Assembly (NCBI GenBank): GCA_029976025.1 | Contig: JARKNX010000059.1 | Coordinates: forward strand, 1 to 64,000 | Source of the DNA: Aggregatilineales bacterium | GTDB taxonomy: Bacteria > Chloroflexota > Anaerolineae > Aggregatilineales > Ch27 | DNA length: 64,000 bases | Reading direction: 5' to 3' | Shown: piece by piece, positions 851 to 50,901 of the stretch | Layout of the letters: every line of letters begins with the position of its first letter | Numbering within the stretch: position 1 is the first letter of the stretch | Program-made: the position numbers and the translations under genes | Notes under the pieces: model-generated | Seen by the model: the letters and a program-made list of their open reading frames with translations, nothing else | What the model was told of the DNA's origin: nothing | Databases searched by the model: none

Positions 851-2098
851 ATGAGCGACCAGCTTCCTCCCTCCGGGGCCTCCGGATCAGGCCCGCAGCC
901 GTACCAGCCCCAGTGGCAGCCCGCCACGCGCCTGATGGTGACGGTGTTCATGATCATCGCCGGGATCGCCGCGGTGGCTTTGCTCCGCCCGGTGCTGGAG
1001 ATGCTGGTCTTCGCCTTCCTGATCACTTTTCTGATGTACCCTCCCGTGGCGATTCTGCGTCGCCGGCTGCGGCTGCCCTGGACGCTGAGCGTGGTGCTGC
1101 TGTTCCTGATACTGGGGGTGGTGGTCATGGGCTTCGTGCTGATGGCCATCCCGGCCCTCATGAGCGGCATCAACGGCCTGATCAAGCTGGGCGAGGATGC
1201 CTACGCGCAGCTCCGTGTGACCCTGAGTGAATATACGCCGGAGCAGGGGGAGATCATGCTGGCCGGCCTTCGCGTGGACCTCAACCCGCTGCTGCTGCCG
1301 CTGCAATCCTTTGTGCTGGGGGGGCTGCAGTTTGGCGCCGGGGTGGCCGCCCCGCCTGACGATCTCTCCGCGCTGGCGTCGAACACGATCAGCCTGCAAG
1401 ACCTGTTCCAGGGCATCATGGGCGTCCTCGGTCCGGTCACCGGGACGGTGACCTCGGCTATCTCCACCGTGGCCGGGTTCGTCGCCAGCCTGTTTCTGGC
1501 GATCTTCGTGGCCTTCCTGGTGCTGCTGGACTGGCCCCGGACCCAGCGGAAGCTGCTCAACAGCGTGTCGCCGCCCTACCGCCGGGAAATCCGCCTGCTG
1601 GTGGAGCGCCTGCAGATGGTGTGGAACGGTTTCTTCCGCGGGCAGGTGACGCTGGGCTTTCTGATCGGGTTTATGACCTGGCTGCAGCTCACCCTGATGG
1701 GCATCCCGGAGCAGGTGCTGCTGGCCGCCCTGACCGGTCTGATCTCCCTCATACCCACTATCGGCGGCTTCGTTTCGCTGATACCGCTGGCGCTGGTGCC
1801 CCTGCTTCAGGGATCGACGGTCTTTGTCGAGATGCCGTACGGCACTCTGGCCTTGCTGGTGGTCGTGATTAACCTGGTTATCGCCCAGATTATCTGGAAT
1901 CTGGTGGCGCCCAAGATTCTGGGGGATGCGGTGGACCTGCCGCTGCCCGTGATCATTGTCGGGGTGCTGCTGGGCGCGGCCGTCGGGGGGGCGCTGGGGG
2001 CATTTCTGGTTACACCCATCGTCGGCACGGCCCGCGTCATCGTCATCTACCTGATGGCCAAAGTGCGCATGCAGAATCCGTTCCCCGACGAGGTATAG
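851..2098 (+). CDS. AI-2E family (DUF20/PerM-type) membrane permease
   Basis: A 415-residue polytopic membrane protein of the AI-2E transporter family, whose members move small molecules or ions; the real substrate is usually unknown. After a proline-rich cytoplasmic tail (residues 1-25) there are paired hydrophobic helices (about 30-100), a less hydrophobic extracytoplasmic stretch (about 110-190), and at least five further helices to about residue 400. The segments LVERLQMVWNGFFRGQ and PLPVIIVGVLLGAAVGGALG are typical of the family. The length is normal. The stop codon TAG (2096-2098) overlaps the first copy of the 17-bp repeat that bounds the downstream restriction island. Confidence 0.88.
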   Translation: MSDQLPPSGASGSGPQPYQPQWQPATRLMVTVFMIIAGIAAVALLRPVLEMLVFAFLITFLMYPPVAILRRRLRLPWTLSVVLLFLILGVVVMGFVLMAIPALMSGINGLIKLGEDAYAQLRVTLSEYTPEQGEIMLAGLRVDLNPLLLPLQSFVLGGLQFGAGVAAPPDDLSALASNTISLQDLFQGIMGVLGPVTGTVTSAISTVAGFVASLFLAIFVAFLVLLDWPRTQRKLLNSVSPPYRREIRLLVERLQMVWNGFFRGQVTLGFLIGFMTWLQLTLMGIPEQVLLAALTGLISLIPTIGGFVSLIPLALVPLLQGSTVFVEMPYGTLALLVVVINLVIAQIIWNLVAPKILGDAVDLPLPVIIVGVLLGAAVGGALGAFLVTPIVGTARVIVIYLMAKVRMQNPFPDEV

Positions 2099-2113
2099 GG
2101 CGCCTGGATGCCC
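2097..2113. repeat. 17-bp direct repeat, left copy, flanking the RM gene
   Basis: The sequence AGGGCGCCTGGATGCCC begins within the stop codon of the permease gene and is repeated identically at 6334-6350, just past the RM gene. The bases on either side differ between the copies. It may mark the left edge of an inserted island. Confidence 0.85.
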
Positions 2114-2212
2114 ACACCCCGCGGGCCTCGCCCCCTTTCGCCTCCCCACCACCGCCAAAATCGCCTATACTCTGTACGTAGATGATCGCGGCGTGAGATA
2201 GAGGATGCGGGC

Positions 2213-5200
2213 ATGAGGCTGACTGAAGAAGCGGCGAAACGCGCCCTTCAGGACTTGCTGAGGGATTACGACCAGCTTCAGCCGGAAGATCGCAGGCAGA
2301 TGAGCGAGGCTAGCGTCGTCCGGCAGTTCATCGATCGGCTGCTGCGCGATGTCCTCGGCTGGCCTATCGAGGACCCGGCCCGCTACAAATACGAGCTGGT
2401 GACGCAGGTCGGGCGGCCTGATATCACTCTGATCCCGGAAGCGGGCGGTATGATCTTCATTGAGGCCAAGCGCTTCGGCGCCCTCAAGGAGCTGGTAGAA
2501 GCCCGCCGGACTGTCCGCGGCGTGATCACGCCGGGGCAGTTGTCGCTGCCCGGCATGGCTGTTGATCGCACCCCCGAGGAGCAGCAGGCCATCAACTACG
2601 CCTTCGCCAACGGCGGCGAATGGGCTATCCTGACTAATTTCGAAAAGCTGCGTCTGTTTAACGCCCGACGCGACTGGCTGGTGCTCTCTTTTGAGCGTCC
2701 GGCGGCATACCTGGACGAATTCGATCTGCTGTGGGAGCTTGCCTATCCCAATATCGCTAGCGGCAGACTGAGCGTCCTCTCCAATCAGCGTGTCACTGCC
2801 GAGGTGGACACCGACTATCTGAAGTTCATCAATGAGTGGCGGGAGAGGCTGGCGCAGGACCTGGTGACGCACCGCGCTCAAAACCCCTGGGCCTTCCATG
2901 CCAACGGGGGCATCAACCTGCCAGAGCTGCGGGCCGTGGTGCAGCGCATCATCGATCGGCTGGTGATTATCCGCTTCGCCGAAGATCATCTGGTCGTGCC
3001 GCCGGGGACGCTGCGCGGCCTGTACGAGTTGCGCCAGCAAAATCAGTACAGCGATCTTGATCAGATGCTCGATACGCTGTTCCGTCGCTTTGACCAGGCG
3101 CACAACTCTGCCCTGTTCGCCTACGGGCTGGCCGATGACGCCGTCTTCAGCGATGATATCCTGATCGCCCTGCTGCGCCGGCTGTACGAAGCCCGCTACC
3201 GCTCCATGTCGCCCGATATCATGGGCAACACCTACGAGCAGTATCTGGGTAAGGCGCTGGCGCTGACCGACGGCGGCGTGACCACCCGCGATAACCTGGA
3301 GACGCGCAAGAAGCAGGGCAGTTACTACACGCCGCAGGTCATCGTCCGCCATCTGGTGGATACCACGCTGGGCCGGGTGCTTTACGGCACGGTGAATGGA
3401 AAGCCGGACGGCGAGCCTGTCCCCGGCGAGGCGCGCAAGACCAGCCGCGATATCCGCGACCTGCGCGTCCTGGACAGCGCGTGCGGCAGCGGCTCCTTTC
3501 TGATTTACGCCTACGAAGTGCTGGCCGACTTCTACCAGAGCGAGATCGCCCGCCTGCAGGCGGATATGCTGCGCCGCGCCGATGCGCTGGCCGCGGCGGG
3601 AGTCAGCCCCTTCGATCGCGAGCTGGCGCTGGCCGATGAGCGGGTGGAGCTGGAGCGTATCCGCGATTATCCGCGCCTGATCCTGGAGACGCACCTCTAC
3701 GGTGTGGACCTGGACCCGCAGGCTGCCGAGATCGCCGTCGTCAACCTGATGATGCGCGGCATGGAGCGCCGTCAGCAGGAGAAGCGGCTGCCGCTCCTGC
3801 TCAACCAGAATATCAAGGTCGGCAACGGTCTGGTTGGGCTGCGGCCCGATGACCCGCGCCTGGCGGAGCACGCCGCCGGGATCGCCGCCGTCCGCCGCCT
3901 GCGCGAGCGGCTGGTGCAGACCCCTAACGGCCCGGAGCATGACGCTATCATCGCCGATCTGGAAGCGGCGGGTGCGGCGCTGCGGGGGGCGCTGGACGCG
4001 CACACAGCCCCGCACTTCACCGATCTGGAGCATATCAGCCCCTTCCACTGGGGAATCGAGTTCCCGGAAGTGTTCTTCGACGCCGACGGCGCGCCGCTGG
4101 ACAACCCCGGCTTCACCATCATCATTGGTAACCCGCCGTGGGAGATTCTCAAGCCCGACCTGCGCGAGTTCTACGCCCAGTTCGACCCCGACATCGAGAG
4201 CAAGCTCAACCGGGCGCAGGTGGAGCGGCGCATCGCGCAGCTTCAGTTAGAGGACCCGCGCCGTGTGGAGTTGTGGGAGACGCAGAAGCGCACGATTGAG
4301 GAAACCGCCGCTTATATCCGCCGGTCGCCGGACTACACCCGGCAGGGCAAGGGCGACACGGCGACGCACAAGCTGTTCCTGGAGCGGATGTACGGCCTGC
4401 TGGCGGACCGAGGGCGGCTGGGTTATGTAGTCCCGTCGGGCATTTACACCGACCTGGGCACGAAGGGCCTGCGCGAGATGCTGCTGAATGAGGGCAACAT
4501 CCAGTACATCTACAGCTTCAGCAACGAGCGCTTCTTCTTCCCCGGCGTGCATCACTCCTTTAAGTTCGTGCTGCTGGGCGCACAAAAAGGGCCGCAGACG
4601 GACGGCTTCTGGTGCGCGTTCCGCTTCAACCCGCGCGTGGCCGTTGCGCCGGACGACCTGCCGGCGTTCCTGGCCGACCCGGCCAACCTGATCTACATGC
4701 GGCGCGACTCGTTGGAGCGGTTCAGCCCGGACAGCCTGAGCATGATGGAGTTCCAGACCCGGCGGGATTACGAGGTGGCGGAGAAGGTGTACGATGGCTG
4801 GCCGCTGCTTGGACCCCAACCTCACCCTAAATCCCTCTCCGTTGACGGAGAGGGACTTGAAGACGCTTCACCAATGTCCGTTGACGGAGAGGGACTTACC
4901 GCTCGCGGAGAGGGGCTTCAAGGTGCTACCCCTCTCTCCGTCAACGGAGAGGGGCCGGGGGTGAGGTTCCCAACGGAACGGGTGATAGGGAGCGAGGTTG
5001 GGGAGCGCTGGCTCGCTACGCCCGCCATGTGGGACTTGCTCAAGCCGCTGGCGCGGCAGATGCGCGCCGCCCCGACTTTGGCGGAGCGCCTGCTGTGGGA
5101 GCACCTGCGCGACCGTCAGGTGGGCGGGCTGAAGTTTCGGCGACAGCACGGCATCGAGCGCTTCATTGTCGATTTCTACTGCGCCGAGATGCGACTGGTG

Positions 5201-6283
5201 ATTGAGGTGGACGGCCCGATTCATGAGTACACACAGGAAGAAGACGCCGTCCGCCAGCAATTTCTGGAGAGTCAGGGCCTCCGTGTGCTTCGCTTCACCA
5301 ACGATGAGGTGTTGAATGACCTGCCGTCTGTGCTGGCGCGGATTGAACCTCACCCTAAATCCCTCTCCGTTGACGGAGAGGGACTTGAAGGCGCTTCGCC
5401 AATGTCTGTTGACGGAGAGGACCTTACCGTTCGCGGACAAGACTCCCCCTCTCCGTCAACGGAGAGGGGGCAGGGGGTGAGGTTCCCAGGCGTACCGCTG
5501 CCTTGGTCTATCAGGCTCAATCGCGAGTTTGACATGGCAAACGACCGCGCATTACTCAATACCGCAGGGCAAGGCGTGCCATTGTGTGAAGGCAAGATGA
5601 TCCATCAATATGATGCATTCTTTGAACTCCCTCAATACTGGATTGCCCCTGACAGGCTAGCTAATCTATCTGAAACAGTGCGAAAAGAGATTTCAACGTA
5701 TCGTGTAGTGCATCGCCGGATCGCTCGCTCAACAGATGAACGAACACTGATCGCTGCAATCGTTCCAATCAACACTGCCTGTGACACAAATGCAACAATG
5801 GTCTTGATTGAAGGCAGCGCTAACGAGAGCGTGAAATTCTACGTCTGTGCGTTGTTTAATACCTTTATGCTGGACTATGTCATCCGGTACAAAGTAAGCA
5901 CAACGCTGAACATGTTCTACCTCTACCAGCTCCCCCTCCCGCGCCTCACCGCCGGCAACCCGTACTTCGACGCCCTCGTGCCGCGCGCCGCCCGGCTGAC
6001 CTGCACCCGCCCGGAATTCGCCGATCTCTGGCAGGAGGTCATGGGCGCGCCGTGGGACGAGTCGTGTGGGGCGACCGACCCCGCCGAACGGGGGCGGCTC
6101 CGCGACGAGATCGACGCCCTCGTCGCCCACCTGTACGGCCTCTCCCGCGCCGACTTCAACCACATCCTGGGGACATTCCCGCTGGTCTTCCCGGAGACTG
6201 ACGCGGGCCGGGCAAAGCGCGAGTCCCTGCTGGCGGAGTACGACCGGATGGCCACGGTCACCGCGACCTGGCCCCGCCGGTGA
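2213..6283 (+). CDS. Type IIG-like restriction-modification protein (Eco57I-type N6-adenine methyltransferase) with in-frame DUF559 insertion
   Basis: A 1356-residue single-chain restriction-modification protein. The N-terminus has a PD-(D/E)xK nuclease signature, RPDITL followed by FIEAK (about 69-89). The methyltransferase core has the AdoMet motif DSACGSGSF (about 420) and the catalytic NPPW (N639). A target-recognition region begins around PLCEGKMIHQYD (about 1123). Between the last methyltransferase helices (VYDGWPLLG, about 865) and the target-recognition domain, residues about 869-1091 come from an inserted DNA element encoding LSVDGEG-type repeats around a second nuclease domain (DUF559, about 939-1044). 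The reading frame stays open through it. The target-recognition part (about 5500-5920) is visibly richer in A+T than the rest, suggesting a swapped domain. No partner subunit lies nearby. The start at 2213 has a GAGG-type site upstream; a TATACT at 2166-2171 may be its -10. Whether the protein is active with the insert is unknown. Confidence 0.85.
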   Translation: MRLTEEAAKRALQDLLRDYDQLQPEDRRQMSEASVVRQFIDRLLRDVLGWPIEDPARYKYELVTQVGRPDITLIPEAGGMIFIEAKRFGALKELVEARRTVRGVITPGQLSLPGMAVDRTPEEQQAINYAFANGGEWAILTNFEKLRLFNARRDWLVLSFERPAAYLDEFDLLWELAYPNIASGRLSVLSNQRVTAEVDTDYLKFINEWRERLAQDLVTHRAQNPWAFHANGGINLPELRAVVQRIIDRLVIIRFAEDHLVVPPGTLRGLYELRQQNQYSDLDQMLDTLFRRFDQAHNSALFAYGLADDAVFSDDILIALLRRLYEARYRSMSPDIMGNTYEQYLGKALALTDGGVTTRDNLETRKKQGSYYTPQVIVRHLVDTTLGRVLYGTVNGKPDGEPVPGEARKTSRDIRDLRVLDSACGSGSFLIYAYEVLADFYQSEIARLQADMLRRADALAAAGVSPFDRELALADERVELERIRDYPRLILETHLYGVDLDPQAAEIAVVNLMMRGMERRQQEKRLPLLLNQNIKVGNGLVGLRPDDPRLAEHAAGIAAVRRLRERLVQTPNGPEHDAIIADLEAAGAALRGALDAHTAPHFTDLEHISPFHWGIEFPEVFFDADGAPLDNPGFTIIIGNPPWEILKPDLREFYAQFDPDIESKLNRAQVERRIAQLQLEDPRRVELWETQKRTIEETAAYIRRSPDYTRQGKGDTATHKLFLERMYGLLADRGRLGYVVPSGIYTDLGTKGLREMLLNEGNIQYIYSFSNERFFFPGVHHSFKFVLLGAQKGPQTDGFWCAFRFNPRVAVAPDDLPAFLADPANLIYMRRDSLERFSPDSLSMMEFQTRRDYEVAEKVYDGWPLLGPQPHPKSLSVDGEGLEDASPMSVDGEGLTARGEGLQGATPLSVNGEGPGVRFPTERVIGSEVGERWLATPAMWDLLKPLARQMRAAPTLAERLLWEHLRDRQVGGLKFRRQHGIERFIVDFYCAEMRLVIEVDGPIHEYTQEEDAVRQQFLESQGLRVLRFTNDEVLNDLPSVLARIEPHPKSLSVDGEGLEGASPMSVDGEDLTVRGQDSPSPSTERGQGVRFPGVPLPWSIRLNREFDMANDRALLNTAGQGVPLCEGKMIHQYDAFFELPQYWIAPDRLANLSETVRKEISTYRVVHRRIARSTDERTLIAAIVPINTACDTNATMVLIEGSANESVKFYVCALFNTFMLDYVIRYKVSTTLNMFYLYQLPLPRLTAGNPYFDALVPRAARLTCTRPEFADLWQEVMGAPWDESCGATDPAERGRLRDEIDALVAHLYGLSRADFNHILGTFPLVFPETDAGRAKRESLLAEYDRMATVTATWPRR
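4818..4968. repeat. Terminal-inverted-repeat (MITE-like) element, copy 1
   Basis: This 151-bp unit starts with AACCTCACCC (4818-4827) and ends with its exact inverse GGGTGAGGTT (4959-4968). Inside are several copies of a small palindrome of the form CTCCGTTGACGGAG, at about 4836-4854, 4877-4893 and 4934-4954. It is translated in frame inside the RM gene as repeats of SVDGEG or SVNGEG. Confidence 0.85.
5346..5484. repeat. Terminal-inverted-repeat (MITE-like) element, copy 2
   Basis: This 139-bp unit has the same ends as copy 1, AACCTCACCC (5346-5355) and GGGTGAGGTT (5475-5484), and the same internal palindromes. Its first 50 bp are nearly identical to copy 1, so the two copies are recent duplicates or are kept alike. 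Confidence 0.85.
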
Positions 6284-6333
6284 AGCCCTTCACCGCGCCA
6301 GTGCCGGGAACGCGGTGGGACAAGAGAGCGTGC

Positions 6334-6350
6334 AGGGCGCCTGGATGCCC
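6334..6350. repeat. 17-bp direct repeat, right copy, flanking the RM gene
   Basis: This copy is identical to AGGGCGCCTGGATGCCC at 2097-2113 and lies 50 bp after the RM stop and 13 bp before the rho -35 box. The pair brackets exactly one gene. Confidence 0.85.
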
Positions 6351-6362
6351 CTAAAGTCTCAC

Positions 6363-6391
6363 TTGCACCCCTTACCAAGCTATGCTATAGT
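6363..6391 (+). promoter_or_regulatory. Sigma70 promoter for rho
   Basis: TTGCAC (6363-6368), a 17-bp spacer and TATAGT (6386-6391) form a good sigma70 promoter. Transcription should start near 6398, leaving a leader of about 215 nt before rho. Confidence 0.7.
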
Positions 6392-6397
6392 GACTTT

Positions 6398-6613
6398 AAC
6401 ACGGTCCCCCCTGTGTATTGCCGGTTTACTCCCATTGTGGACCTTCGCCTGGTGTTGATCATTCTCAGTCCTGCTTACGCTACCCAGAGGGTGCCATAGT
6501 CGCCTAATCCCGCCTGTTCGGGTTCGATTCCCCCAATACAAGTGGATCCGCCAGACCTTTCTGCGCCTTCTGCCGCCCTGGCCAGCCGCGCTTACCTTAT
6601 TTGGAGCTTATAG
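6398..6613 (+). promoter_or_regulatory. Long C-rich leader of rho
   Basis: The untranslated leader is long for a bacterial gene and is clearly richer in C than G, particularly over 6421-6600. Such stretches can serve as Rho-loading (rut) sites, and rho genes in other bacteria are known to control themselves in their leaders. It also contains GGGTTCGATTCCC (6520-6532), which resembles a tRNA T-arm, but no full tRNA can be folded around it. A ribosome site, TTGGAG, precedes the ATG. Confidence 0.4.
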
Positions 6614-7894
6614 ATGGATATCGCAGACCTTCAGAACAAGACGCTGTCCGATCTACGTCGCAAAGCCCAGGAAGCCGATATCACCAACTACAGCCGTCTC
6701 AAGAAGTGGGACCTCATCCTGCGCCTGCTGCGGGATAACGCCGAGAAAAAGGGCTATGAGCTGCGCGGCGGTGTCCTGGAAATTATTGACGACGGCATCG
6801 GCTTTCTGCGTTCCAACGACTATTTGCCCGGCCCCGAAGATATTTACGTTTCCCAGACCCAGATCAAGCGCTTTGGGCTGCGCACCGGCGATTTTGTCAT
6901 CGGTCAGGTCCGCCCGCCCAAGGACTCGGAGAAGTACTTCGGCCTGTTGCGGGTGGAGGCGATCAACGGCAAGTCGCCCGACCTGGCCAAAACCCGCCCC
7001 AACTTCGAAAACCTGACCGCCATCTTCCCCGAGGAGCGCTATAACCTGGAGACATCCCCGCGCATCCTGAGCACGCGCCTGCTCAACCTGATCGCGCCTA
7101 TTGGCAAGGGGCAGCGCGGCCTGATCGTCAGCCCGCCCAAAGCCGGCAAGACGACGGTGCTCAAGGATGTGGCGAACGCCATCAGCCAGAACTACCCGCA
7201 GGTGCACCTGATGGTCGTCCTGATTGGCGAGCGCCCGGAAGAAGTGACCGATATGGATCGTTCAGTAGAGGCGGAAGTGATCAGCTCCACCTTCGACGAG
7301 CCGGTGACTCATCACGTGCGCGTGGCCGAGATGGCTCTGGAGCGGGCCAAGCGGCTGGTGGAGGGCGGCTCTGACGTGGTGATCATGCTGGACAGCATCA
7401 CCCGGCTGGCCCGCGCCTACAACCTGGTCGTGCCGCCCAGCGGGCGCACCCTGACCGGCGGCATTGATCCCTCGGCCCTGTACCCGCCCAAGCGCTTCTT
7501 CGGCGCGGCCCGTAACGTGGAGGAAGGGGGCAGCCTGACTATCGTCGCCACCTGCCTGGTCGATACCGGCAGCCGCATGGACGACGTGATCTACGAGGAA
7601 GACACGGGCACCGGCAACAAGGAACTGCACCTCAATCGCACGAGGCAGGAGCGGCGTATCTGCCCGGCCTTCGATATTGAGCGCAGCAGCACCCGCCGCG
7701 AGGAACTCCTGCTCGGTCCGGATGTCTTGCAGCGCGTCTGGCTGATGCGGCGCATGCTCTCCCACCTGATGAACGAGGAAGGCAACGGCGGCGACAACGC
7801 GCTGGTTAACGCCACTGAGCGCCTGCTGGGCCAGCTCCGCCAGACGGACACCAACGAGGACTTCCTGACCGCGCTGGGCAAGCCCGGCAAGTGA
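6614..7894 (+). CDS. rho: Transcription termination factor Rho
   Basis: A 426-residue hexameric RNA-dependent ATPase that ends transcription at Rho-dependent sites. The N-terminal helical Rho_N domain starts with [19 protein letters not shown]; the cold-shock-like RNA-binding fold follows (about 48-120, with [14 protein letters not shown]); the RecA-type ATPase has Walker A PPKAGKTT (about 175), Walker [10 protein letters not shown], and the Q-loop/R-loop part [20 protein letters not shown]. The length is close to the E. coli protein, without the large insertions of actinobacterial Rho. It has its own promoter and leader, and is followed by a hairpin. Confidence 0.97.
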
Positions 7895-7926
7895 TCTCCG
7901 CCCCCACGATATGACGCTTCTTCAAG

Positions 7927-7951
7927 CGGGCCGGCGATCGTCGCCGGCCCG
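7927..7951 (+). terminator. Strong hairpin after rho
   Basis: An 11-bp perfect GC-rich stem (7927-7937 with 7941-7951) has a 3-nt loop. Only a weak T-run follows, so it may end or protect the rho transcript. Confidence 0.55.
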
Positions 7952-7979
7952 TTACGTGTGGGGAACTGCCGCCGGCGGG

Positions 7980-7985
7980 TATAAT
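7980..7985 (+). promoter_or_regulatory. Candidate -10 box for the GT39-like gene
   Basis: A perfect TATAAT lies 41 bp before the ATG at 8027. No convincing -35 box is visible at the right distance. Confidence 0.35.
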
Positions 7986-8026
7986 TCACGTGGTAACCTG
8001 ATCAGGCATCGCCCGCGAGATCCCCT

Positions 8027-9850
8027 ATGGCCGAGACAGCCCCGACCCCTCCTGCCTCCTGCCTGATGCTTCGGCGCGCCCTGCCGGCGGCGCTCCTGCT
8101 CCTCCTGATCGCGGCGGCGCGCATAATGCTGCTGGGTGGGCTGGAGATCGGCGTGGATGAAGCGTGGTCGATCTGGCAGGGGATGGGTTCCCCGGCGGAT
8201 ATCCTGCGCTGGACGCCGTATGACTGGCCGCCGCTGTACTACCTGAGCCTGGCTGGCTGGCGGGCTGCCATCGGGATGCACCCGATCCTGCTGCGGAGCC
8301 TGTCCGTCCTGATCTTCCTGCCGGGGGCGGCGGCGACGTATCGCATCGCACGCCGCTGGGGCGGCGAACGGGCCGGCCTGCTGGCGATGCTGGCTTACGG
8401 CGGGCCAGGGTACAGCCTGTTCCTGACGACGGAGCTGCGCGGCTATGCCCCGGCCATGGGTCTGCTGCCGGTGGCGTTCTGGCTGACACTCCGCTACTTT
8501 GACCGGCCATCCTTTCGGCGCGGTGTCCTGCTGGGCTTCGTCCTGGCAGCTATGTTCTACGTCACGTTCACCAGCGCCGTCGCTTTCGTGGTGCTCGGCC
8601 TGTTCACGGCAATCGTCTGCGGGCGGCGCATCTGGCGCTGGTGGCTGCCGGTCGTTGCCCTGCTTGCGCTGGCCGCGCCGCTAATCCTGGCCAAGCTGGC
8701 GCTGGTTGCCTCCCGCACGACGGCTACCCGCGAGCTTATCCTGGCTCCGTTTGCCGAGGCGCTGGGGCTGCTTTTCCGTTCCGTCGCCGGCCTGCACGCC
8801 GCTGGCTGGGCGGTACTGCTCCTCGTCGCCAGCGGCCTGCTGCTCCTGCGGTGGCGGACGATGCCCGCCCGGCTGCGCCGCCCGGCGCTGGGCCTGCTGC
8901 TGTGGTGGCTGGGCGGGGCGGCGACGATGTATGCCCTCAATAATCTGCTGGGATTCTTCGGCCCGCGCTATTCGTGGTGGCTGATGTTGGGGCTGGCCCT
9001 CTGGCTGGGCTGGGGCCTGGCTTATCTGCCGCGGGCCGGAGGCGCGCTGGCCGGCGCGGCCATGGCCGTCTTCATGCTGGCGCCGGGCGACCTGTACGCG
9101 GCTTACCAGATTCCGGGGGAGCCGCTGGCGGCCAATCTGGCCTGGCTGGCCGGACACAGCCAGCCGGGCGATGTCGTGGTGCTCGATCCGCACAATGACT
9201 GCGCTTCTCCGGAGGAGTGGGCGTACCTCAGCCAGGTGTTCCTGCCGCAGGGGCCGGCTTTTGTCGCCGCGCCGGGGGAGCACCGCCGCGTGTGGTATGT
9301 GACCTACGATCAGAGCGAAGACGCCGCGCTGCGCGACGCCGTGCGGGAAGGGCGCGTGCCGGGCGTCTATGTCGGCCCGCCGCGCTGCCTGATCCGACTG
9401 TACGAAGGCCCGCCCGACCCGCAGGGCATCCTCTTCGCCAACGGGATGCGCTTCCACGGCATGGACATACTGGAGGACAGCCGGGGGCCGTTCATCGTCC
9501 GCCACGAGGGCGAGCCGGTCCGCGTCCGGCTGTGGTGGTCCGCTGGCCGCCCGGTGGACGGCGATTACAGCATCGGCCTGCACCTGCTGGACGAGGACGG
9601 CGCGCTGCTCAGCCAGCACGACAGCGGGCCGCTGGCGCTCGACGCGCCGGGCGAGACGAGCACCTGGCTCCCCGGCCGCTTCTACGTCGAGGAGCGCGAA
9701 GTCGCCGTGCCGTACCCGCTGAACCGGATGAGCCGGCTGCTGCTGGAGCTGGTGGTGTACCGCTGGCAGGACGGGACGCGGATCGCGGCGCCCGGCGCCG
9801 GCGAGGACGGCGCGCTCCCCCTGGGCGAGGTATTCGTGGCGGCGTGGTGA
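8027..9850 (+). CDS. GT39-like membrane glycosyltransferase (GT-C fold)
   Basis: A 607-residue integral membrane protein of the dolichyl/polyprenyl-phosphate-sugar-dependent transferase type. The first transmembrane helix (about 20-38) is followed by the acidic GT-C signature VDEAW (D44, E45), which normally acts as catalytic base, and DWPPLYY (66-72), both typical of the PMT/ArnT group. Many hydrophobic helices continue to about residue 360. The last 240 residues are soluble and beta-rich (YEGPPDPQGILFANGMRFHG onward), probably an extracytoplasmic sugar- or lipid-facing domain. The acceptor is unknown. It lies alone on this strand, convergent with the DUF1232 gene 8 bp after its stop. Confidence 0.8.
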   Translation: MAETAPTPPASCLMLRRALPAALLLLLIAAARIMLLGGLEIGVDEAWSIWQGMGSPADILRWTPYDWPPLYYLSLAGWRAAIGMHPILLRSLSVLIFLPGAAATYRIARRWGGERAGLLAMLAYGGPGYSLFLTTELRGYAPAMGLLPVAFWLTLRYFDRPSFRRGVLLGFVLAAMFYVTFTSAVAFVVLGLFTAIVCGRRIWRWWLPVVALLALAAPLILAKLALVASRTTATRELILAPFAEALGLLFRSVAGLHAAGWAVLLLVASGLLLLRWRTMPARLRRPALGLLLWWLGGAATMYALNNLLGFFGPRYSWWLMLGLALWLGWGLAYLPRAGGALAGAAMAVFMLAPGDLYAAYQIPGEPLAANLAWLAGHSQPGDVVVLDPHNDCASPEEWAYLSQVFLPQGPAFVAAPGEHRRVWYVTYDQSEDAALRDAVREGRVPGVYVGPPRCLIRLYEGPPDPQGILFANGMRFHGMDILEDSRGPFIVRHEGEPVRVRLWWSAGRPVDGDYSIGLHLLDEDGALLSQHDSGPLALDAPGETSTWLPGRFYVEEREVAVPYPLNRMSRLLLELVVYRWQDGTRIAAPGAGEDGALPLGEVFVAAW

Positions 9851-14156: not shown

Positions 14157-14290
14157 ATTGCGGGCAGCAGGCTCGGGCCGGGTCCAGCGCGGCAGGACCT
14201 CCCAACCGTGTCAGGGCCGGAAGGTAGCAGCACTAAGGAGTCTCTCCTGGGTGCCGCAGGAGCGCCTGGCCTGAGCCTGCTGCCCGTAAT
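14157..14290 (+). ncRNA. ffs: Signal recognition particle RNA, small bacterial (4.5S) type
   Basis: The conserved SRP core TCAGGGCCGGAAGGTAGCAG (14211-14230), with the GGAA tetraloop and its symmetric loop, is followed by CACTAAGGAG and GGGTGCCGCAGG. The ends pair: the first 14 nt from 14161 are complementary to the last 14 nt ending at 14286, extended by ATTG/TAAT to 14157 and 14290. The fold is a single long hairpin of about 130 nt without an Alu domain. It scaffolds Ffh for co-translational membrane targeting. A longer open frame crosses it but is not coding here. Confidence 0.95.
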
Positions 14291-17261: not shown

Positions 17262-20200
17262 ATGAATAGAAATCGATATTTTTGGTCGGGCGCGTTAATT
17301 CTGATCATTGTGCTGAGCATCCTGGCGCCGGTCGCCGCCCAGGGAGGCGGCCCGCTCGACGGGAGCTTCAGCGGGATGCTGGCGCTGCGCCGCGTGCCGG
17401 TCAGCGATGTGTCTGGCCAGAGCGGGCAGATCGTCGTCCTGGCGCCGCAGGGAGAGACGGTTGTCGAGACGCCCATTGCGGTGAGCAATTCGGCTATCCA
17501 CGTGCTTGGCTGGCGGGGGACGGGTGATCTGCTCTACGTGCAGCAGGGCGAAGCGGGCGAGCTTGACGCCATGCTGTACAACCCGGCGGACGCCACGCAG
17601 CTAGTGCTGGCTTCTGGCCTCCCGGGCGACCAGCGTTACGCCATGCTGGATGATGGCCGGGTGATAGGCTGGACCGCCTCCGGCCTGCTGACTGACGTAT
17701 CTCTGTACGATCCGGCCACCATGAGCGCCGTCTCCTCGCATAATGTGGCGGCGGCCGGGCTGAGCGATGCTGAGCTGGCCGGCAGCAGCGGCTCTCTGGT
17801 GTATTTTTATACCACCCGTGGCGGGGACACCCTGCTGGCGGTGGACCCGCAGACGGGGATGCTCTACGGGCCAGTAGACGCGCTGGCCGCTGGGGATGGC
17901 GCTGAGACGGTGGCCTACGCCGCTATAGTATCGGGCGGCCCGCTGTGGCTGGCCGGCACGACGAGTCCCAAAGCGATGTCCGCCGTGGCGGAGATACCCC
18001 TGGCCGGGGACGGTTCCTTCCTGACGACGGACGCCCAGCCGCGCCCGCTGGCCGGGGCGGTCGCCCATCCGCTGGGCGTGAGCGCTGTGCAGCGCGTCAT
18101 GCCGTGGGCAGGCGGCGGAGTGGTGATCTCCGCGCTGCCCGGCGACTTCAGCGGCAGCGATGTCACCCTGGTGGACGCATCTTTCCAGAATATCGTTGGC
18201 GGGCCGGTGCGGACCGCTTTCAATTCCTGTGTCCTATTCACGCCTGACGCCCGGTGGATGCTGTTTCTCAGCCGCGACGGGGGCGCTCTTCAGGCGGTCC
18301 CGGTGGCTGATCCGGTCGCCGGGCCAGTCACCCTGTTGACTGGCGAGCCGCGTCTGGACCTGTGCGGGGCGTCCTGGCTCCCGGCGGAGCTGATGCCCAC
18401 CGCGGTTGCGACGGAGCAGTCGATTGAGATCGGCGTGCCGGGCCAGATCGCGGCCGGGCAGGCCGTGACCGGCGAGGTCACCGGCGAACAGCCTGCGGCC
18501 GAGTTTGCGCTGCCCCTGGCTGCCGGCGAACCGGTCACCATCACCATGGAACGGCTGGGCGGCAACCTGGATTCCTTCCTGATTCTGATCGGCCCGGATG
18601 GCCGTGAGCTGATGCGGAATGACGACGCCGCGATTCAGGTGGGCGACACGTTCATGAACGCCCAGATAGCCGGTTTCGTCCCCCCCGTGGCGGGGACGTA
18701 TACGGTGCGGGCCACGCGTTTTGGCGAACAGAACGGCATCAGCACCGGACCCTTCCGACTGACGGTGACGTCTGGCGGCGAGCCGCTCGCCATAGCCAGC
18801 CCGACGCCAGCAGCCATAACGGTAACAGCGACGCCCGTGCCGCCGACCACGGCGGGGTCGGTGCTGCGCGTGGGCGATGTAGTAGCTGGCGAGATCAACG
18901 ACAACCAGCCGCGCATCCCGTACACGATAACGCTGGAGGCCGGACAGGTTGTGACGTTCACGATGGAGCGTATGCCCGACAGCCAGCTCGACTCCTACCT
19001 CATTCTCCGCAACCCGAACGGGGATGAAGTGGCGCGGAATGACGACGCGGCGGCGACCGTGGGGAGCAGCAGCCTTAACGCTCAGATTGCCGATTATCGG
19101 GTTTCCACCAGCGGGACATTCACGCTGGAGGCGACGCGCTGGCAGCAGGAAACCGGCAGCAGCTCCGGTGAATACCAGCTCAGCGTGACGCCGGGGAGGA
19201 CGCTCACGGTTACTACGACGGGGACGGCGCTGCGCGTTGGCGATGTCGTGAGCGGTGAGATCAGCGATGCCCAACCGCGCATCCTGTACACGATAGCGCT
19301 GGAGGCCGGGCAGTCTGTGACATTCACGATGGAGCGCACGTCCGGCCAGCTTGATTCCTACCTCATCCTCCGCGATCCGAACGGAGATGAAGTGGCGCGG
19401 AATGACGACGCGGCGGCGACCGTGGGGAGCAGCGGTCTCAACGCCCAGATCGCCAATTACCGGGTCTTCATCGGCGGGACGTACACGCTGGAAGCGACGC
19501 GCTGGCAGCAGGAGAGCGGCAGCAGCAGCGGCCGGTTCTGGCTGACGGTGGAGCAGGGGGTGGCGCCGGCTGCCGGTCAGACGCTGGAAGTGGGCAGCGT
19601 GGTGACCGGCAGCATCGACGCCGAACAGTATGCGGTGGAATATCCGGTTGTCCTGACGGCCGGGCAGGCGGTGACCTTCACGATGGTACGGACGGACGGC
19701 GACCTGGATGCGCTGCTGATCCTGCTGGACAGCAGGGGCGTCGAGGTGGCGCGCAACGATGACGCCGACGTCATTGTGGGTGATACGTTCGTGAACGCGC
19801 AGATTGCCGGTTTCGTCAGTTCTGCTGGCGGCGCATACACCCTGCGGGCGACGCGCTACCGCGAAGCCTACGGTTCTTCCAGCGGGGCTTACGAGCTGCG
19901 GATGACGGCGGGCGGCGCGCCGCCTGCTATCAGTCCGACGCCCGCGGCGCCGGCTGTCGGTCAGACGCTGGAAGTGGGCAGCGTGGTGACCGGCAGCATC
20001 AACGCCGGGCAGTATGCGGTGGAATATCCGGTTGTCCTGACGGCCGGGCAGGCGGTGACCTTCACGATGGTACGGACGGACGGCGACCTGGATGCGCTGC
20101 TGATCTTGCTGGACAGCAGGGGCGTCGAGGCGGCGCGCAACGATGACGCCAGCACCCCTGTGGGCGACACGTGGCTGAATGCGCAGATAGTCGGTTTCGT

Positions 20201-21455
20201 CAGCCCTGCTGACGGCGCATACACCCTGCGGGCGACGCGCTATCGCGAAGCCAGCGGTTCTTCCAGCGGGGCTTACGAACTGCGGATGACGGCGGGCGGC
20301 GCGGCTGTTATACCGGGCGCAGCAGTTGTTTCCGGCGGCCCGATCGGCCTGAACCAGCCAACTACAGGCACGATCGACAACAGCCGGCCAATAATCGAGT
20401 ACGCGGTACTGCTGGAAGCCGGGCAACAGATCACAATCACGATGGAATGGACCAGCGGGAATCTGGATCCGTATCTCAACCTGCTGGATCCCGGCCGCAA
20501 TCTTATCGCCTACAATGATGACGCCGCCCAGCGCGTCGGCACCAGCGGCCTGAATGCCCAGATTACCGGGTTTACGGTCCCGGCTAATGGCATCTACATG
20601 GTGCAGGCCACCCGCTTCGGGCAGGAAAATGGCAGCAGCAGTGGCGGCTTCCAGTTGACGGTCAGCTCGTTCGCCGGCGCGCCAGCGACCCCCGTCCCTG
20701 GCGTGGTTGGGTCGGTGAATAACGGCGTGCAAACGGGTCAGGAAGTCAGGGTCGGGAGCGTGGTCGACGGCATGATCTCAGTGGAAGTCTACACCATAGA
20801 GTACCCGATTACCCTGAACGCAGGCGACACAATCAAGGTCAGCATGGAACGGACCAGCGGCAATCTCGACCCGCTTCTGGTCATCTTCGGGCTTGACGAT
20901 CAGGCCGCCGCCTTCAACGATGACGCGTCCGCGGTCGGCGGCTATAACGCCCAGATCGCCAGCTTCACCGCCCCCGGCACAGGCGTGTACTACATCTGGG
21001 CCACCCGGTATCGCCTCGAACAGGGCACCTCGACCGGCACGTTCACCATGCGCGTGGAACAGGGCGTGCCGGTGGAGGCGATTAGCGGCGGGCCTGTCCA
21101 GATCGGCGATGTCAAAGTGAACGCCCTGACCAACACCGTCTTCGCCGTGGATTACACCATCACTCTGCAAGCGGGACAGATAATTACGGTGACGATGGAA
21201 GCGCTGAATCCGGGGCTGGACTCGTCGCTGGTTATCCTCAGCCAGGCAGGTGAGGAGCTGGCCTATAACGATGACGCGGCTGCACAGGTCGGCGAGTCCG
21301 TGCTCAACGCCCAGATTGTGGGCTTCAGCGCGCCGGCGACGGGGACATACACCATCCGGGCGACCCGCTACTTCGCCGAAGGTGGCTCCTCCATCGGGCG
21401 CTTCCGCCTGACGATCGCTGCCGGCGGCGAGGCTTCCTCCGCCACTACGAAATAG
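17262..21455 (+). CDS. Exported protein with eight tandem PPC-like domains
   Basis: A 1397-residue secreted protein. A signal peptide (MNRNRYFWSG to APVAAQ, residues 1-27) precedes a beta-rich, propeller-like N-terminal region (about 30-385). Eight repeats of about 115-125 residues follow, each with the pattern EAGQxVTFTMERxxGxLDSYLILxxPxG-ARNDDAAxxVG-LNAQIAxF-GTYTLxATRxxxxxGxSSGxxxLTV. This is the bacterial pre-peptidase C-terminal (PPC) fold, normally an add-on of secreted enzymes and possibly involved in carbohydrate or surface binding; no enzyme domain is present here. Repeats 4 and 5 (19569-19910 and 19964-20302) are almost identical in DNA, and 2 and 3 are close. The ATG at 17262 was preferred to the one at 17205 because it starts the signal peptide. 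Confidence 0.85.
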   Translation: MNRNRYFWSGALILIIVLSILAPVAAQGGGPLDGSFSGMLALRRVPVSDVSGQSGQIVVLAPQGETVVETPIAVSNSAIHVLGWRGTGDLLYVQQGEAGELDAMLYNPADATQLVLASGLPGDQRYAMLDDGRVIGWTASGLLTDVSLYDPATMSAVSSHNVAAAGLSDAELAGSSGSLVYFYTTRGGDTLLAVDPQTGMLYGPVDALAAGDGAETVAYAAIVSGGPLWLAGTTSPKAMSAVAEIPLAGDGSFLTTDAQPRPLAGAVAHPLGVSAVQRVMPWAGGGVVISALPGDFSGSDVTLVDASFQNIVGGPVRTAFNSCVLFTPDARWMLFLSRDGGALQAVPVADPVAGPVTLLTGEPRLDLCGASWLPAELMPTAVATEQSIEIGVPGQIAAGQAVTGEVTGEQPAAEFALPLAAGEPVTITMERLGGNLDSFLILIGPDGRELMRNDDAAIQVGDTFMNAQIAGFVPPVAGTYTVRATRFGEQNGISTGPFRLTVTSGGEPLAIASPTPAAITVTATPVPPTTAGSVLRVGDVVAGEINDNQPRIPYTITLEAGQVVTFTMERMPDSQLDSYLILRNPNGDEVARNDDAAATVGSSSLNAQIADYRVSTSGTFTLEATRWQQETGSSSGEYQLSVTPGRTLTVTTTGTALRVGDVVSGEISDAQPRILYTIALEAGQSVTFTMERTSGQLDSYLILRDPNGDEVARNDDAAATVGSSGLNAQIANYRVFIGGTYTLEATRWQQESGSSSGRFWLTVEQGVAPAAGQTLEVGSVVTGSIDAEQYAVEYPVVLTAGQAVTFTMVRTDGDLDALLILLDSRGVEVARNDDADVIVGDTFVNAQIAGFVSSAGGAYTLRATRYREAYGSSSGAYELRMTAGGAPPAISPTPAAPAVGQTLEVGSVVTGSINAGQYAVEYPVVLTAGQAVTFTMVRTDGDLDALLILLDSRGVEAARNDDASTPVGDTWLNAQIVGFVSPADGAYTLRATRYREASGSSSGAYELRMTAGGAAVIPGAAVVSGGPIGLNQPTTGTIDNSRPIIEYAVLLEAGQQITITMEWTSGNLDPYLNLLDPGRNLIAYNDDAAQRVGTSGLNAQITGFTVPANGIYMVQATRFGQENGSSSGGFQLTVSSFAGAPATPVPGVVGSVNNGVQTGQEVRVGSVVDGMISVEVYTIEYPITLNAGDTIKVSMERTSGNLDPLLVIFGLDDQAAAFNDDASAVGGYNAQIASFTAPGTGVYYIWATRYRLEQGTSTGTFTMRVEQGVPVEAISGGPVQIGDVKVNALTNTVFAVDYTITLQAGQIITVTMEALNPGLDSSLVILSQAGEELAYNDDAAAQVGESVLNAQIVGFSAPATGTYTIRATRYFAEGGSSIGRFRLTIAAGGEASSATTK

Positions 21456-32505: not shown

Positions 32506-32762
32506 ACATCCTCCCACAGGTTCTTTCCGCGAATAGTACTGATGGCCTAGAGTATACCCGCCGTCGGGCGAAATTACCCTGATCCCGGCGAATGATAATG
32601 GATATCGGTTGAACTGGGCGCTGACGTCACCTTTATCCCCGGCCATGCGGCCCATATGACCCTGTGGCTGGCCCCTTTCTCCTCCGCCAGCGGCGTGTGC
32701 TTCCCTCTCCGCCAGCGGAGAGGGACCGAGGGTGAGGTTCAATGTTAGGCCGGAGAATCAAA
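32506..32762. repeat. Intergenic region with a truncated copy of the GGGTGAGGTT palindromic element
   Basis: This spacer contains a 22-bp palindrome (32703-32724, CCCTCTCCG and its inverse around CCAG) followed by GGGTGAGGTT (32730-32739). That is the same right end as the two elements inside the RM gene. The left terminal repeat is missing, so this is a partial copy. Nothing else is recognisable apart from a possible -10 box for the GT4 gene. Confidence 0.65.
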
Positions 32763-48700: not shown

Positions 48701-49288
48701 ATGAACGAATCGCAGGAACATATTTTGAAGATGGTCAGCAGCGGCGCGATCACGGCTGAGGAAGCTGATCGGCTGCTGAATGCGATGGGGGACACGGCGG
48801 AAGACGCCCTGCCGGAAGCCGGGCCGGTCAGCCTGGACGGGCTGCCTGACGCGGCCAGCCTGGGCGAACGCTGGCAGTTCCTGTTTATCATGTCGCTGGG
48901 CGTCATGGCGCTCAGCGGGCGGCGTATTCTGAGGCGGCGGCGCGGCTTCTTCGGCAAGCTGCTGCTGCCGCTGGACTGGGCGGCCTTCCTGCTGGGGGTG
49001 GTCGGCATGCTGCTTTCCCTGTGGAGCCGCAGCGCCCGCTGGCTGTATGTCCACATTGTTCAGCGCGACGGCCGTGAGATCAGGCTGACCCTGCCCGTGC
49101 CCGCCCGGGCGCTTGGCAGCCTGCTGCGGCGCGCCAGCCAGATCGGTGATCCGCAGTCGCGCGAGCAGATGCTGGCGGCGGCGGATTTTCTGGAAGCGGT
49201 CCACGAAGAGATGGATCGTCCGGACAGCGTGCCGCTGGTCATTGATATCAACGACGAAGGCCAGCAGGTGCAGGTGTATCTGCTTTGA
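48701..49288 (+). CDS. Membrane protein with N-terminal SHOCT-like domain
   Basis: A 195-residue protein. The N-terminus EHILKMVSSGAITAEEADRL is the same short helical hairpin seen in its neighbours. Two transmembrane helices follow (about 48-62 and 82-103), then a soluble C-terminal domain with a helix-rich region and strands (VPLVIDINDEGQQVQVYLL). AGGAG lies upstream of the ATG; the next gene follows after 20 bp. Confidence 0.7.
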   Translation: MNESQEHILKMVSSGAITAEEADRLLNAMGDTAEDALPEAGPVSLDGLPDAASLGERWQFLFIMSLGVMALSGRRILRRRRGFFGKLLLPLDWAAFLLGVVGMLLSLWSRSARWLYVHIVQRDGREIRLTLPVPARALGSLLRRASQIGDPQSREQMLAAADFLEAVHEEMDRPDSVPLVIDINDEGQQVQVYLL

Positions 49289-49308
49289 TCGCGAGGAATG
49301 AGGCCGTT

Positions 49309-49683
49309 ATGGGAACTCCTGAAGAACGCTTGCGCATTCTGAAGATGCTGGAAGAAGGCACGATCACGGCGGATGAAGCGACCCGCCTGCTGCAGGCGCT
49401 TGGCGCCGGTCGCAGCCCCGCCGCGCGCGCGACTGCCGGGCGGGAGCCGCGCTGGCTGCGCGTCCGCATCACCGACATCAACACCCAGGAGAACAAGGTC
49501 AGCATCAATATCCCGATGGGGCTGGTGCGTACCGGCATTCGCATGGGGATGCGCTTTGTGCCCAGCGATTCCGAGATTGACTATCAGGAGCTGATGGACG
49601 CCATCCAGAACGGCGAGACCGGCAAGCTGCTGGAGATTGTCGATCAGGAGCAGGGCGAGCACGTCGAAATCTGGGCGGAGTAA
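49309..49683 (+). CDS. Small protein with N-terminal SHOCT-like domain
   Basis: A 124-residue soluble protein. EERLRILKMLEEGTITADEA (residues 5-24) is the cluster's shared hairpin; the rest (WLRVRITDINTQENKVSINI, then EIDYQELMDAIQNGETGKLL) forms a small beta-alpha domain also seen at the end of the preceding protein. It is the last gene of the cluster. Its stop codon overlaps a palindromic element shared with the convergent GT4 gene. Confidence 0.72.
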   Translation: MGTPEERLRILKMLEEGTITADEATRLLQALGAGRSPAARATAGREPRWLRVRITDINTQENKVSINIPMGLVRTGIRMGMRFVPSDSEIDYQELMDAIQNGETGKLLEIVDQEQGEHVEIWAE

Positions 49684-49748
49684 CCTCATCCCTGGCCCCT
49701 CTCCGTTGACGGAGAAGAGAAAAGGGGCCGGGAGTTAAAGGGTGAGGT
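49682..49748. repeat. Small GGGTGAGG-ended palindromic element between convergent genes
   Basis: AACCTCATCCC (49682-49692) and GGGTGAGG (49740-49747) are near-inverse ends, with CTCCGTTGACGGAG (49700-49713) inside, as in the elements of the RM gene. It overlaps the stop codons of both neighbouring genes and can fold as a hairpin in either transcript. Confidence 0.7.
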
Positions 49749-50901
49749 GGGTGAGGCTGCGATACAGCGTATCCATGTCGCGGATCAGCCGGTCTGCGCT
49801 GTAGCGGTCCAGCATGGCTGCCTGCGCCGCGCTGACATCCGGCGGCTCCTGCAGGGCGGCGATCATGGCCCCGGCCAGCGCCGCTTCGTCCCCCGGCGGG
49901 ACGAGCGCGCCCAGCGCCCCTCCCTCCAGCAGATCGGGGATGCCGCCGACCGCCGTGCACACCACCGGGCAGCCGCCGGCCAGCGCCTGAATGACGGCGG
50001 TAGGGGTCCCCTCGTTGTCGCTGCTGATCACCAGCACGTCCATGTCGGCGTAAGCTGGAGCCACGTCGCGCTGCCAGCCGGTGAAAGTCACCGCCCCGCG
50101 CAGACCCAGCGCTTCCACCTGCGCCTCCGCCGCCGCCCGCGTCTCGCCGTCGCCGATGATGACGAAGTGCGCCTCCGGGAGCGCCCGCTTCACTGCCGCT
50201 GCCGCCCGCAGGAACAGATCGTGATTCTTGATCGGGACCATCCGCCCGACGATGCCGGCCAGCGGCGCCGCGGGCGGGATGCCCCAGGCGCGGCGGAAGT
50301 CGCCAGTCCGGCGCGGCGTGCGGGCGTATGGCTCCAGGTCCAGCCCCAGCGGCAGGATGCGGATCTTCTCTTTTGGCGCGATGCGGTAAACATCGGCCAG
50401 CTCGTCGCGCAGATCGCCGGTCAGGGTGAGGATGACGTCGGTCATGCGCCCGATCAGCCGCTCCAGCCACAGGAAGAGCTGCGTCTGGCGCTTCCCGAAG
50501 TATCCCTGAAAGACATGGCCGTGGAAGGTGTGGACGATGATGGGCACGCCGGCCAGCCGCGCTGCCAGCCGACCTACGAAGCCCGCTTTGGCTGTGTGCG
50601 TGTGGACTACGTCGGGCCGCAGGCGGCGGATCAGGCGGTAGACCTTCCACAGCGTGACCAGATCGCGCGCCGGGTGCAGCGCCCGGCCCAGCTCCGGAAT
50701 GATGATCGGCTCCACGCCGAGCGATTCGGCGTAGTAGCGCATATCGCCTTCTTCCGCGCCGACGCTCCCACAGACCAGGATGCTCTCGTACTCCGGCGGG
50801 CCGAGCCGCGCCGTCAGCAGGGCGACGTGGAGGGCCGGGCCGCCGACGTTCAGCCGGGCGATCAGGCGCAGGACGCGGATGGGGCGTTCAGGAGCGGGCA
50901 T
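49735..50901 (-). CDS. GT4 family glycosyltransferase
   Basis: A 388-residue GT-B transferase. It starts PIRVLRLIARLNVGGPALHV with the glycine-rich acceptor loop, has HTHTAKAGFVGRLAARLAGV (about 96), the donor-site GIVGRMVPIKNHDLFLRA (about 216) and DNEGTPTAVIQALAGGCPVV (about 297) in place of the classic E-x7-E. The ATG at 50901 gives the family's usual N-terminus; the frame is open further to 50970. The last codons and stop lie in the palindromic element. Confidence 0.85.
   Translation of the reverse strand: MPAPERPIRVLRLIARLNVGGPALHVALLTARLGPPEYESILVCGSVGAEEGDMRYYAESLGVEPIIIPELGRALHPARDLVTLWKVYRLIRRLRPDVVHTHTAKAGFVGRLAARLAGVPIIVHTFHGHVFQGYFGKRQTQLFLWLERLIGRMTDVILTLTGDLRDELADVYRIAPKEKIRILPLGLDLEPYARTPRRTGDFRRAWGIPPAAPLAGIVGRMVPIKNHDLFLRAAAAVKRALPEAHFVIIGDGETRAAAEAQVEALGLRGAVTFTGWQRDVAPAYADMDVLVISSDNEGTPTAVIQALAGGCPVVCTAVGGIPDLLEGGALGALVPPGDEAALAGAMIAALQEPPDVSAAQAAMLDRYSADRLIRDMDTLYRSLTHLTL

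What the first reader, a model, noticed from the sequence alone, without database searches (positions are those of the whole stretch)
2097..6350. Restriction-modification gene bracketed by a perfect 17-bp direct repeat
AGGGCGCCTGGATGCCC occurs at 2097-2113, inside the stop codon of the upstream gene, and at 6334-6350, just before the rho promoter. Only the RM gene lies between. This looks like an island inserted or deletable by recombination at the repeat, with the repeat rebuilding the end of the permease gene.
Basis: seen in the sequence. Interest (0 to 1): 0.7.

Follow-up and report, generated by a model that had tools for sequence, protein, structure and literature searches.

The report
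Nuclease cassette nested in restriction gene

Summary
The 17-bp direct repeat is real and exact. It is the only such pair in the 4.0-Mb genome and is longer than chance usually gives around one gene. No held relative keeps the permease-RM-rho order, so no empty site exists to test the island reading: undecided.

The stronger finding lies inside the RM gene. Its 1356-aa frame contains a 226-aa in-frame insert (4814-5491) that five homologous RM proteins lack. The insert is a Vsr/homing-endonuclease-fold nuclease (DUF559) bracketed by two direct copies of a ~140-150-bp palindromic repeat. The genome's other DUF559 copy sits the same way in an unrelated MmeI-like RM gene.

Across 154 genomes of the order I read 42 such in-frame insertions, mostly in RM genes but also in PriA, PurL-PurQ and HdrA. 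In Bacteroidota the cassette sits in the only leucyl-tRNA synthetase of eight genomes, and also in methionine synthase. The nuclease residues are kept (40 of 42 copies; dN/dS 0.03-0.19). Left and right ends carry inverted repeats; RAYT transposase genes do not.

Best reading: a splicing-independent, homing-like nuclease element that survives in genes because its ends are readable linkers. The anatomy is shown; the movement mechanism is inferred. No paper describing this was found.

The parts
2097..2113 (+). first copy of the 17-bp direct repeat, overlapping the permease stop codon
6334..6350 (+). second copy of the 17-bp direct repeat, upstream of rho
2213..6283 (+). Eco57I-like type IIG-type restriction-modification gene (1356 aa), host of the cassette
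   Evidence: Pfam Eco57I 6e-19, N6_Mtase 2e-10, MmeI_Mtase 3e-8
4814..5491 (+). in-frame insert of 226 codons (residues 868-1093), absent from five homologues
   Evidence: tblastn and alignment
4818..4968 (+). left palindromic repeat: inverted ends AACCTCACCC/GGGTGAGGTT, inner hairpins CCCTCTCCGTTGACGGAGAGGG
   Evidence: the repeat finder I1, I2, D2
5042..5344 (+). DUF559 (Vsr-fold nuclease) domain, no own start or stop codon, active-site residues intact
   Evidence: Pfam PF04480 6e-35; alignment; fold match to 3HRL, I-Bth0305I and Vsr
5346..5484 (+). right palindromic repeat, direct copy of the left one (93% over 92 bp, spacing 528 bp = 176 codons)
851..2098 (+). AI-2E-family transporter (permease), upstream neighbour
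   Evidence: PF01594 6e-36
6614..7894 (+). rho, downstream neighbour
   Evidence: PF07497 3e-33

Best explanation
The RM gene hosts a nested element of a widespread family: a Vsr-fold (DUF559) nuclease reading frame with no own start or stop, bracketed by palindromic repeats with conserved inverted ends (CCTCACCC...GGGTGAGG). Shown: it is inserted in frame at a tolerated loop, homologues lack it, the nuclease is under purifying selection, and related cassettes sit in many unrelated genes, some single-copy and essential. Inferred: it spreads like a homing element, the nuclease cutting cassette-free alleles or related repeats so that repair copies the cassette in. It persists because its repeats encode stop-free Pro/Ser/Gly-rich linkers, so the host protein works with the nuclease as an extra loop domain and no splicing is needed. 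Recombination between the two direct repeats could remove it without shifting the frame.
For: Five homologues align through the insertion point without the insert. Both DUF559 copies of this genome lie in this way inside two unrelated RM genes. 42 in-frame insertions read in the order, in RM genes, PriA, PurL-PurQ, HdrA and FGE proteins. The only leuS of eight Bacteroidota genomes and the only priA of three Chloroflexota genomes carry it in an open frame. Within-locus inverted repeats of 40 bits or more in 32 of 58 loci against 6.8% of cross-locus pairs. Terminal motif beside DUF559 in 28 of 62 loci, oriented > left and < right, and the same ends in Bacteroidota. Active site intact in 40 of 42 inserted copies, dN/dS 0.03-0.19. 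Fold match to homing endonuclease I-Bth0305I and Vsr. The tree needs 23 host changes for 42 inserted copies, and some host sites were filled by more than one lineage.
Against: No movement or cleavage was observed. No cassette-free allele of the same species was available, and the nearest cassette-free homologue is only 77% identical. Repeat copy number also correlates with RAYT transposases, and G051 has 658 motif copies without a detected DUF559. No consistent target-site duplication. Recurrent insertion at one site may partly reflect vertical inheritance or simply a tolerant loop. I selected long frames for reading, so the count says nothing on how often insertions destroy genes.
Confidence: 0.6

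Rival explanations
1. Passenger model: the repeats are REP/MITE elements moved by another enzyme (for example a RAYT/Y1 transposase), and DUF559 is cargo that came to lie between two repeats by recombination.
For: Motif copy number is higher in genomes with a RAYT (median 54 against 4). Solitary hairpin copies resemble REPs. G051 has 658 motif copies and a RAYT but no detected DUF559.
Against: 19 of 20 RAYT loci have no motif in the stretch read and the remaining one has it some 900 bp away, whereas DUF559 is bracketed by it. This genome has no canonical RAYT, only one weak hit in a 674-aa frame. The nuclease is under purifying selection wherever it lands.
Confidence: 0.2
2. Domain recruitment: DUF559 is a functional accessory nuclease of the RM enzyme, selected for restriction, and its spread through RM genes reflects a useful fusion.
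For: At least 26 of 42 inserted hosts in the order are DNA-methylase/RM genes, and in the window the insert lies between methylase and putative target-recognition regions.
Against: The same cassette lies in LeuRS, PriA, methionine synthase, PurL-PurQ, HdrA and methylmalonyl-CoA mutase, where a nuclease has no evident use. It is always bracketed by repeat-coded peptides, and the insertion points within RM genes differ.
Confidence: 0.1
3. An intein-like or intron-like element: the cassette is removed at the protein or RNA level.
For: It lies in conserved single-copy genes, as inteins do.
Against: No intein (Hint) domain in any scanned host protein; no group I or II intron or other ribozyme family in the element; the ends vary and keep the frame open throughout.
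Confidence: 0.05
4. One reading: the whole RM gene is an island inserted, or deletable, at the 17-bp repeat. It can be true together with the best explanation.
For: The repeat is exact, unique in the genome and the longest of 77 gene-flanking matches; the RM family is found in differing contexts.
Against: No empty site can be found, family members lack flanking repeats, and no recombinase is present.
Confidence: 0.35

Closest known systems
EDxHD (Vsr-like) homing endonucleases, type I-Bth0305I
   Same: Fold of the catalytic domain (3R3P, E 4e-5); lies inside conserved genes; recurrent insertion sites.
   Different: Here no intron or intein carries it; it is translated in frame with the host and bracketed by palindromic repeats. 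Homing endonucleases are held to enter coding sequence thanks to splicing (PMC3943268).
Rickettsia palindromic elements (RPE)
   Same: Palindromic repeats inserted in frame in unrelated protein-coding genes (PMC10969869).
   Different: RPEs are about 150 bp and are not described there as coding a nuclease; here the repeats bracket a conserved nuclease domain and the family spans phyla.
REP/REPIN elements with RAYT transposases
   Same: High-copy short hairpins, solitary and paired, with a dedicated single gene beside some copies.
   Different: The gene bracketed here is a Vsr-fold nuclease, not a Y1 transposase; RAYT genes of the same order do not carry this motif beside them.
Caulobacter VsrA (DUF559, free-standing)
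   Same: Same domain family; linked to DNA damage in cells lacking a cytosine methyltransferase (PMC12907096).
   Different: A free-standing gene; the authors read it as a mismatch-repair endonuclease.
RM insertion with long target duplication (Nobusato et al. 2000)
   Same: An RM gene flanked by a direct repeat.
   Different: No related genome with the empty site is available here.

Membership tests
DUF559 / Vsr-fold nuclease | sequence profile and fold | tested here: met
   PF04480 6e-35; AF2 pLDDT 85; 3HRL 6e-9, 3R3P 4e-5, 1VSR 9e-3
DUF559 / Vsr-fold nuclease | conserved acidic and His active-site residues | tested here: met
   E, D-F, E-x-D-G-x-x-H kept in the window copy and in 40 of 42 inserted copies
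homing element (EDxHD type) | site-specific cleavage of the cassette-free allele | not testable with these tools
   needs biochemistry
homing element (EDxHD type) | recurrent insertion at the same site by horizontal transfer | tested here: inconclusive
   FGE and type ISP sites filled by more than one DUF559 lineage, but tolerant loops could explain it
intein | Hint splicing domain and splice-junction residues | tested here: not met
   no such domain in scanned host proteins; junctions variable
group I or group II intron | intron RNA core | tested here: not met
   no Rfam match in the element or in 8 host loci
RPE / intragenic MITE | palindromic repeat inserted in frame in coding genes | tested here: met
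RPE / intragenic MITE | short and without an enzyme gene | tested here: not met
   a conserved nuclease domain lies between the repeats
REP/RAYT system | Y1 transposase gene flanked by the repeats | tested here: not met
   no motif adjacent to any of 20 RAYT loci; no canonical RAYT in this genome
Eco57I-like type IIG RM enzyme (host) | N6-methylase domain | tested here: met
   Eco57I 6e-19, N6_Mtase 2e-10
Eco57I-like type IIG RM enzyme (host) | N-terminal nuclease domain | tested here: inconclusive
   HSDR_N E 0.0019, below the curated cut-off
RM insertion with target duplication | empty site with one repeat copy in a relative | tested here: inconclusive
   no held relative keeps the permease-rho junction

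The most novel reading that the evidence does not exclude
A class of selfish element that invades protein-coding genes of many bacterial phyla without any splicing: a Vsr-fold nuclease frame between palindromic terminal repeats that are readable as flexible protein linkers, so that essential enzymes such as leucyl-tRNA synthetase and PriA work with a homing-type nuclease lodged in a loop, with solitary repeats acting as its non-autonomous derivatives.
Probability: 0.5. Interest if true: 0.9.

Novelty: new variant of a known kind. Interest (0 to 1): 0.75.

Why it matters
Homing endonuclease genes are thought to enter conserved coding sequence because introns and inteins splice them out. An element that does so simply by being translatable and tolerated would add a third route. 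It would explain why DUF559 is fused to so many unrelated proteins and flanked by repeat-coded peptides, and would give DUF559, a family of unknown function in Pfam, a testable role as the motor of a common repeat family. It also means that such fusions should not be read as real multidomain enzymes in annotation.

Tried and rejected
1) Empty site for the 17-bp repeat: permease and rho located in relatives, no shared junction. 2) Flanking repeats around other members of the RM family: none. 3) Group I/II intron or other RNA family: none; Flavo-1 hits in L266 lie far from DUF559 and look unrelated. 4) RAYT as owner of the repeats: copy numbers correlate, but the motif is not beside RAYT genes. 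5) Target-site duplication: weak and not consistent. A 2-3-bp complementarity outside the repeats was found instead; whether it is an extended terminal repeat or a palindromic target could not be decided, because the motif copies looked at in three other genomes were mostly one-ended (the script found no two-ended copy). 6) Multiple-of-3 spacing as proof of an excision mechanism: weakened, since some repeats have only one open frame. 7) AlphaFold of the LeuRS-DUF559 fusion: pLDDT 37, not used. 8) Assembly artefact: rejected, since the insertion is seen in isolates (Cellulophaga baltica, Hyunsoonleella ulvae, Aequorivita todarodis) and in many independent assemblies.
Full report
Observation. 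The 17-mer AGGGCGCCTGGATGCCC lies at 2097-2113 and 6334-6350 and nowhere else in the window at up to three mismatches; it occurs exactly twice in the 4.0-Mb assembly. The upstream copy starts on the last two bases of the stop codon of an AI-2E-type permease gene (851-2098), the downstream copy lies upstream of rho (6614-7894), and only the RM frame 2213-6283 lies between. Exact pairs of this length are not rare over 64 kb (simulation mean 1.6), but as a match between the two 150-bp flanks of one gene it ranks first of 77 frames, the next being 14 bp of low complexity. The repeat is therefore real and locally unusual.

The island reading could not be decided. Rho in the nearest genomes (87-88% identical) and the permease (55-57%) sit in unrelated surroundings, so there is no junction to compare. 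Homologues of the RM gene occur in other contexts and carry no comparable flanking repeat. Insertion of RM genes with target duplication is a published mechanism (Nobusato et al. 2000, cited in PMC3031569 and PMC4978471), so the idea is reasonable but unproven.

What lies inside the RM gene. The frame encodes 1356 aa with Eco57I/N6-methylase domains and, at residues 944-1044, a DUF559 domain. Five homologues (L088, L089, L091, L092, L093) align straight through the place with no such domain: residues 868-1093 of the window protein are extra, exactly 226 codons, with no loss of host sequence beyond one or two residues. Without them the protein would be about 1130 aa, as in the complete relatives (1133-1181 aa). 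The insert begins and ends with direct copies of a 140-150-bp repeat (4818-4968 and 5346-5484; 93% over 92 bp, 528 bp apart), each with inverted ends AACCTCACCC/GGGTGAGGTT and an inner hairpin of the type CCCTCTCCGTTGACGGAGAGGG. Solitary members of the repeat family occur elsewhere in the genome; the places looked at lie between genes or at gene ends.

The pattern repeats. The only other DUF559 in this genome (contig C12) sits in the same way, between repeats of different sequence, in the C-terminal part of an MmeI-like RM gene. In 154 genomes of the order, 90 have DUF559, and the enclosing frames fall mainly into two classes, about 125-240 aa and about 900-1800 aa. I read 42 copies inside longer frames: at least 26 in DNA-methylase/RM genes (type ISP, MmeI-like, Eco57I-like, DUF1156), three more in a putative methylase family without a Pfam match, six in FGE-domain proteins (the one scanned is a TIR-NACHT-FGE fusion), four in PriA, and single cases in PurL-PurQ, HdrA and one other. 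Twelve of these frames were scanned with profile HMMs; the rest were named by sequence likeness. The repeats are translated on both sides as peptides of the type PSPSPxGEG. The free-standing copies examined lie between genes.

Beyond the phylum. A scan of GTDB genomes returned 80 DUF559 loci. In Bacteroidota the cassette lies in the editing-domain region of leucyl-tRNA synthetase, in methionine synthase, in methylmalonyl-CoA mutase and in a type I restriction subunit, with the same CCTCACCCC...GGGGTGAGG ends in several cases. In all eight genomes tested the interrupted leuS is the only leuS over the family cut-off and its frame has no stop, in isolates as well as in metagenome assemblies; in one of them (L263) the gene runs off a contig end. 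The same single-copy state holds for priA in three Chloroflexota genomes, one of which (L164) has a decayed DUF559. An essential, single-copy enzyme must therefore work with the insert, or the insert must be spliced out; no intein or intron signal was found.

Is the nuclease functional? Active-site residues are intact in 40 of 42 inserted copies, and dN/dS between pairs of domains, where it could be computed, is 0.03-0.19, also between copies in different host genes. AlphaFold2 gives a confident model of the window domain (pLDDT 85) whose best matches are a DUF559 protein (3HRL), the homing endonuclease I-Bth0305I (3R3P, E 4e-5) and Vsr (1VSR, E 9e-3).

Is it mobile? A tree of 62 domains needs 23 changes of host among the 42 inserted copies; close relatives sit in different host families, and some host sites have been filled by different lineages (FGE at least two origins; type ISP several, though one of those five copies, L170, lies at a different point). 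The tree rests on 117 columns and many forks are unresolved. The two copies in this genome belong to different clades. Flanks share inverted repeats of at least 40 bits within a locus in 32 of 58 cases, against 6.8% of mismatched pairs. The terminal motif CCTCACCCN{5,7}CCCTCTCC occurs up to 658 times per genome, with one hit in all for the reversed control, and is commoner in genomes with DUF559 (median 20 against 3, p = 1e-5; family-stratified permutation p = 2e-4, genus-stratified 0.045). It is also commoner in genomes with RAYT transposases, but RAYT genes do not have it beside them, whereas DUF559 does in 28 of 62 loci, in the orientation of terminal inverted repeats. Spacing between the bracketing direct repeats is a multiple of three in 15 of 17 inserted cases against 9 of 22 others; this is partly forced by the need for an open frame, but it means that loss by recombination would be frame-neutral.

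Mechanism. Shown: an in-frame cassette, repeat-bracketed, with a conserved nuclease, in many unrelated genes, absent from homologues. Inferred: spread by nuclease-provoked break repair (homing) into cassette-free alleles or repeat sites, persistence through tolerance as a loop domain, and solitary repeats as non-autonomous derivatives. The chief rival is that the repeats are moved by something else and DUF559 is cargo. Direct biochemical and transfer tests are listed under next steps.

Relation to known systems. It works like a homing element but lacks the intron or intein that is held to make entry into coding sequence possible (PMC3943268). It resembles Rickettsia palindromic elements in its in-frame insertion (PMC10969869) but encodes a nuclease. 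Full-text searches found 14 open papers that mention DUF559, and no report of such cassettes was met with (only some of these papers were opened). Subscription papers were not searchable, so prior description cannot be excluded.

Noticed in passing
L099 (own contig C12), about 4674-8336 on the minus strand: The second RM gene (MmeI-like) that carries a DUF559 cassette has a stop codon in mid-frame (KLRMG*WLHEAERPGM), so that copy may be a pseudogene or hold an assembly error.
   Followed up: no
window 49684-49756: A solitary palindromic element of the same family follows directly on the gene at 49285-49683 and seems to supply or overlap its stop codon.
   Followed up: partly
window 32693-32737: A half element (GGAGAGGGACCGAGGGTGAGGTT end) of the same repeat family upstream of a small heat-shock-like gene on the minus strand (gene name from the sequence only).
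   Followed up: no
window 18600-20300: Long direct repeats (96, 48, 43 bp exact; spacing 363 and 384 bp) within what looks like a protein with repeated domains.
   Followed up: no
window 14176-14274: Bacterial small signal recognition particle RNA (Rfam RF00169, 62.1 bits).
   Followed up: no
42 cassettes with both terminal motifs (list): The 1-3 bases just outside the terminal motif are complementary between left and right far more often than in shuffled pairs (93, 67, 52% against 47, 34, 27%), up to 6-8 bp in L275 and L291: longer terminal repeats or palindromic targets.
   Followed up: partly
L164 (G110, PriA): The DUF559 domain in this PriA is decayed and has no flanking motif, an apparent relic of an insertion in a gene whose frame stayed open.
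   Followed up: no
G051 (whole genome): 658 copies of the terminal motif with no DUF559 detected but a RAYT present, the main case against DUF559 being the only driver.
   Followed up: no
L250 (cyanobacterium): A DUF559 cassette lies near the C-terminal end of what looks like a relative of the window's RM family, at a different site.
   Followed up: no
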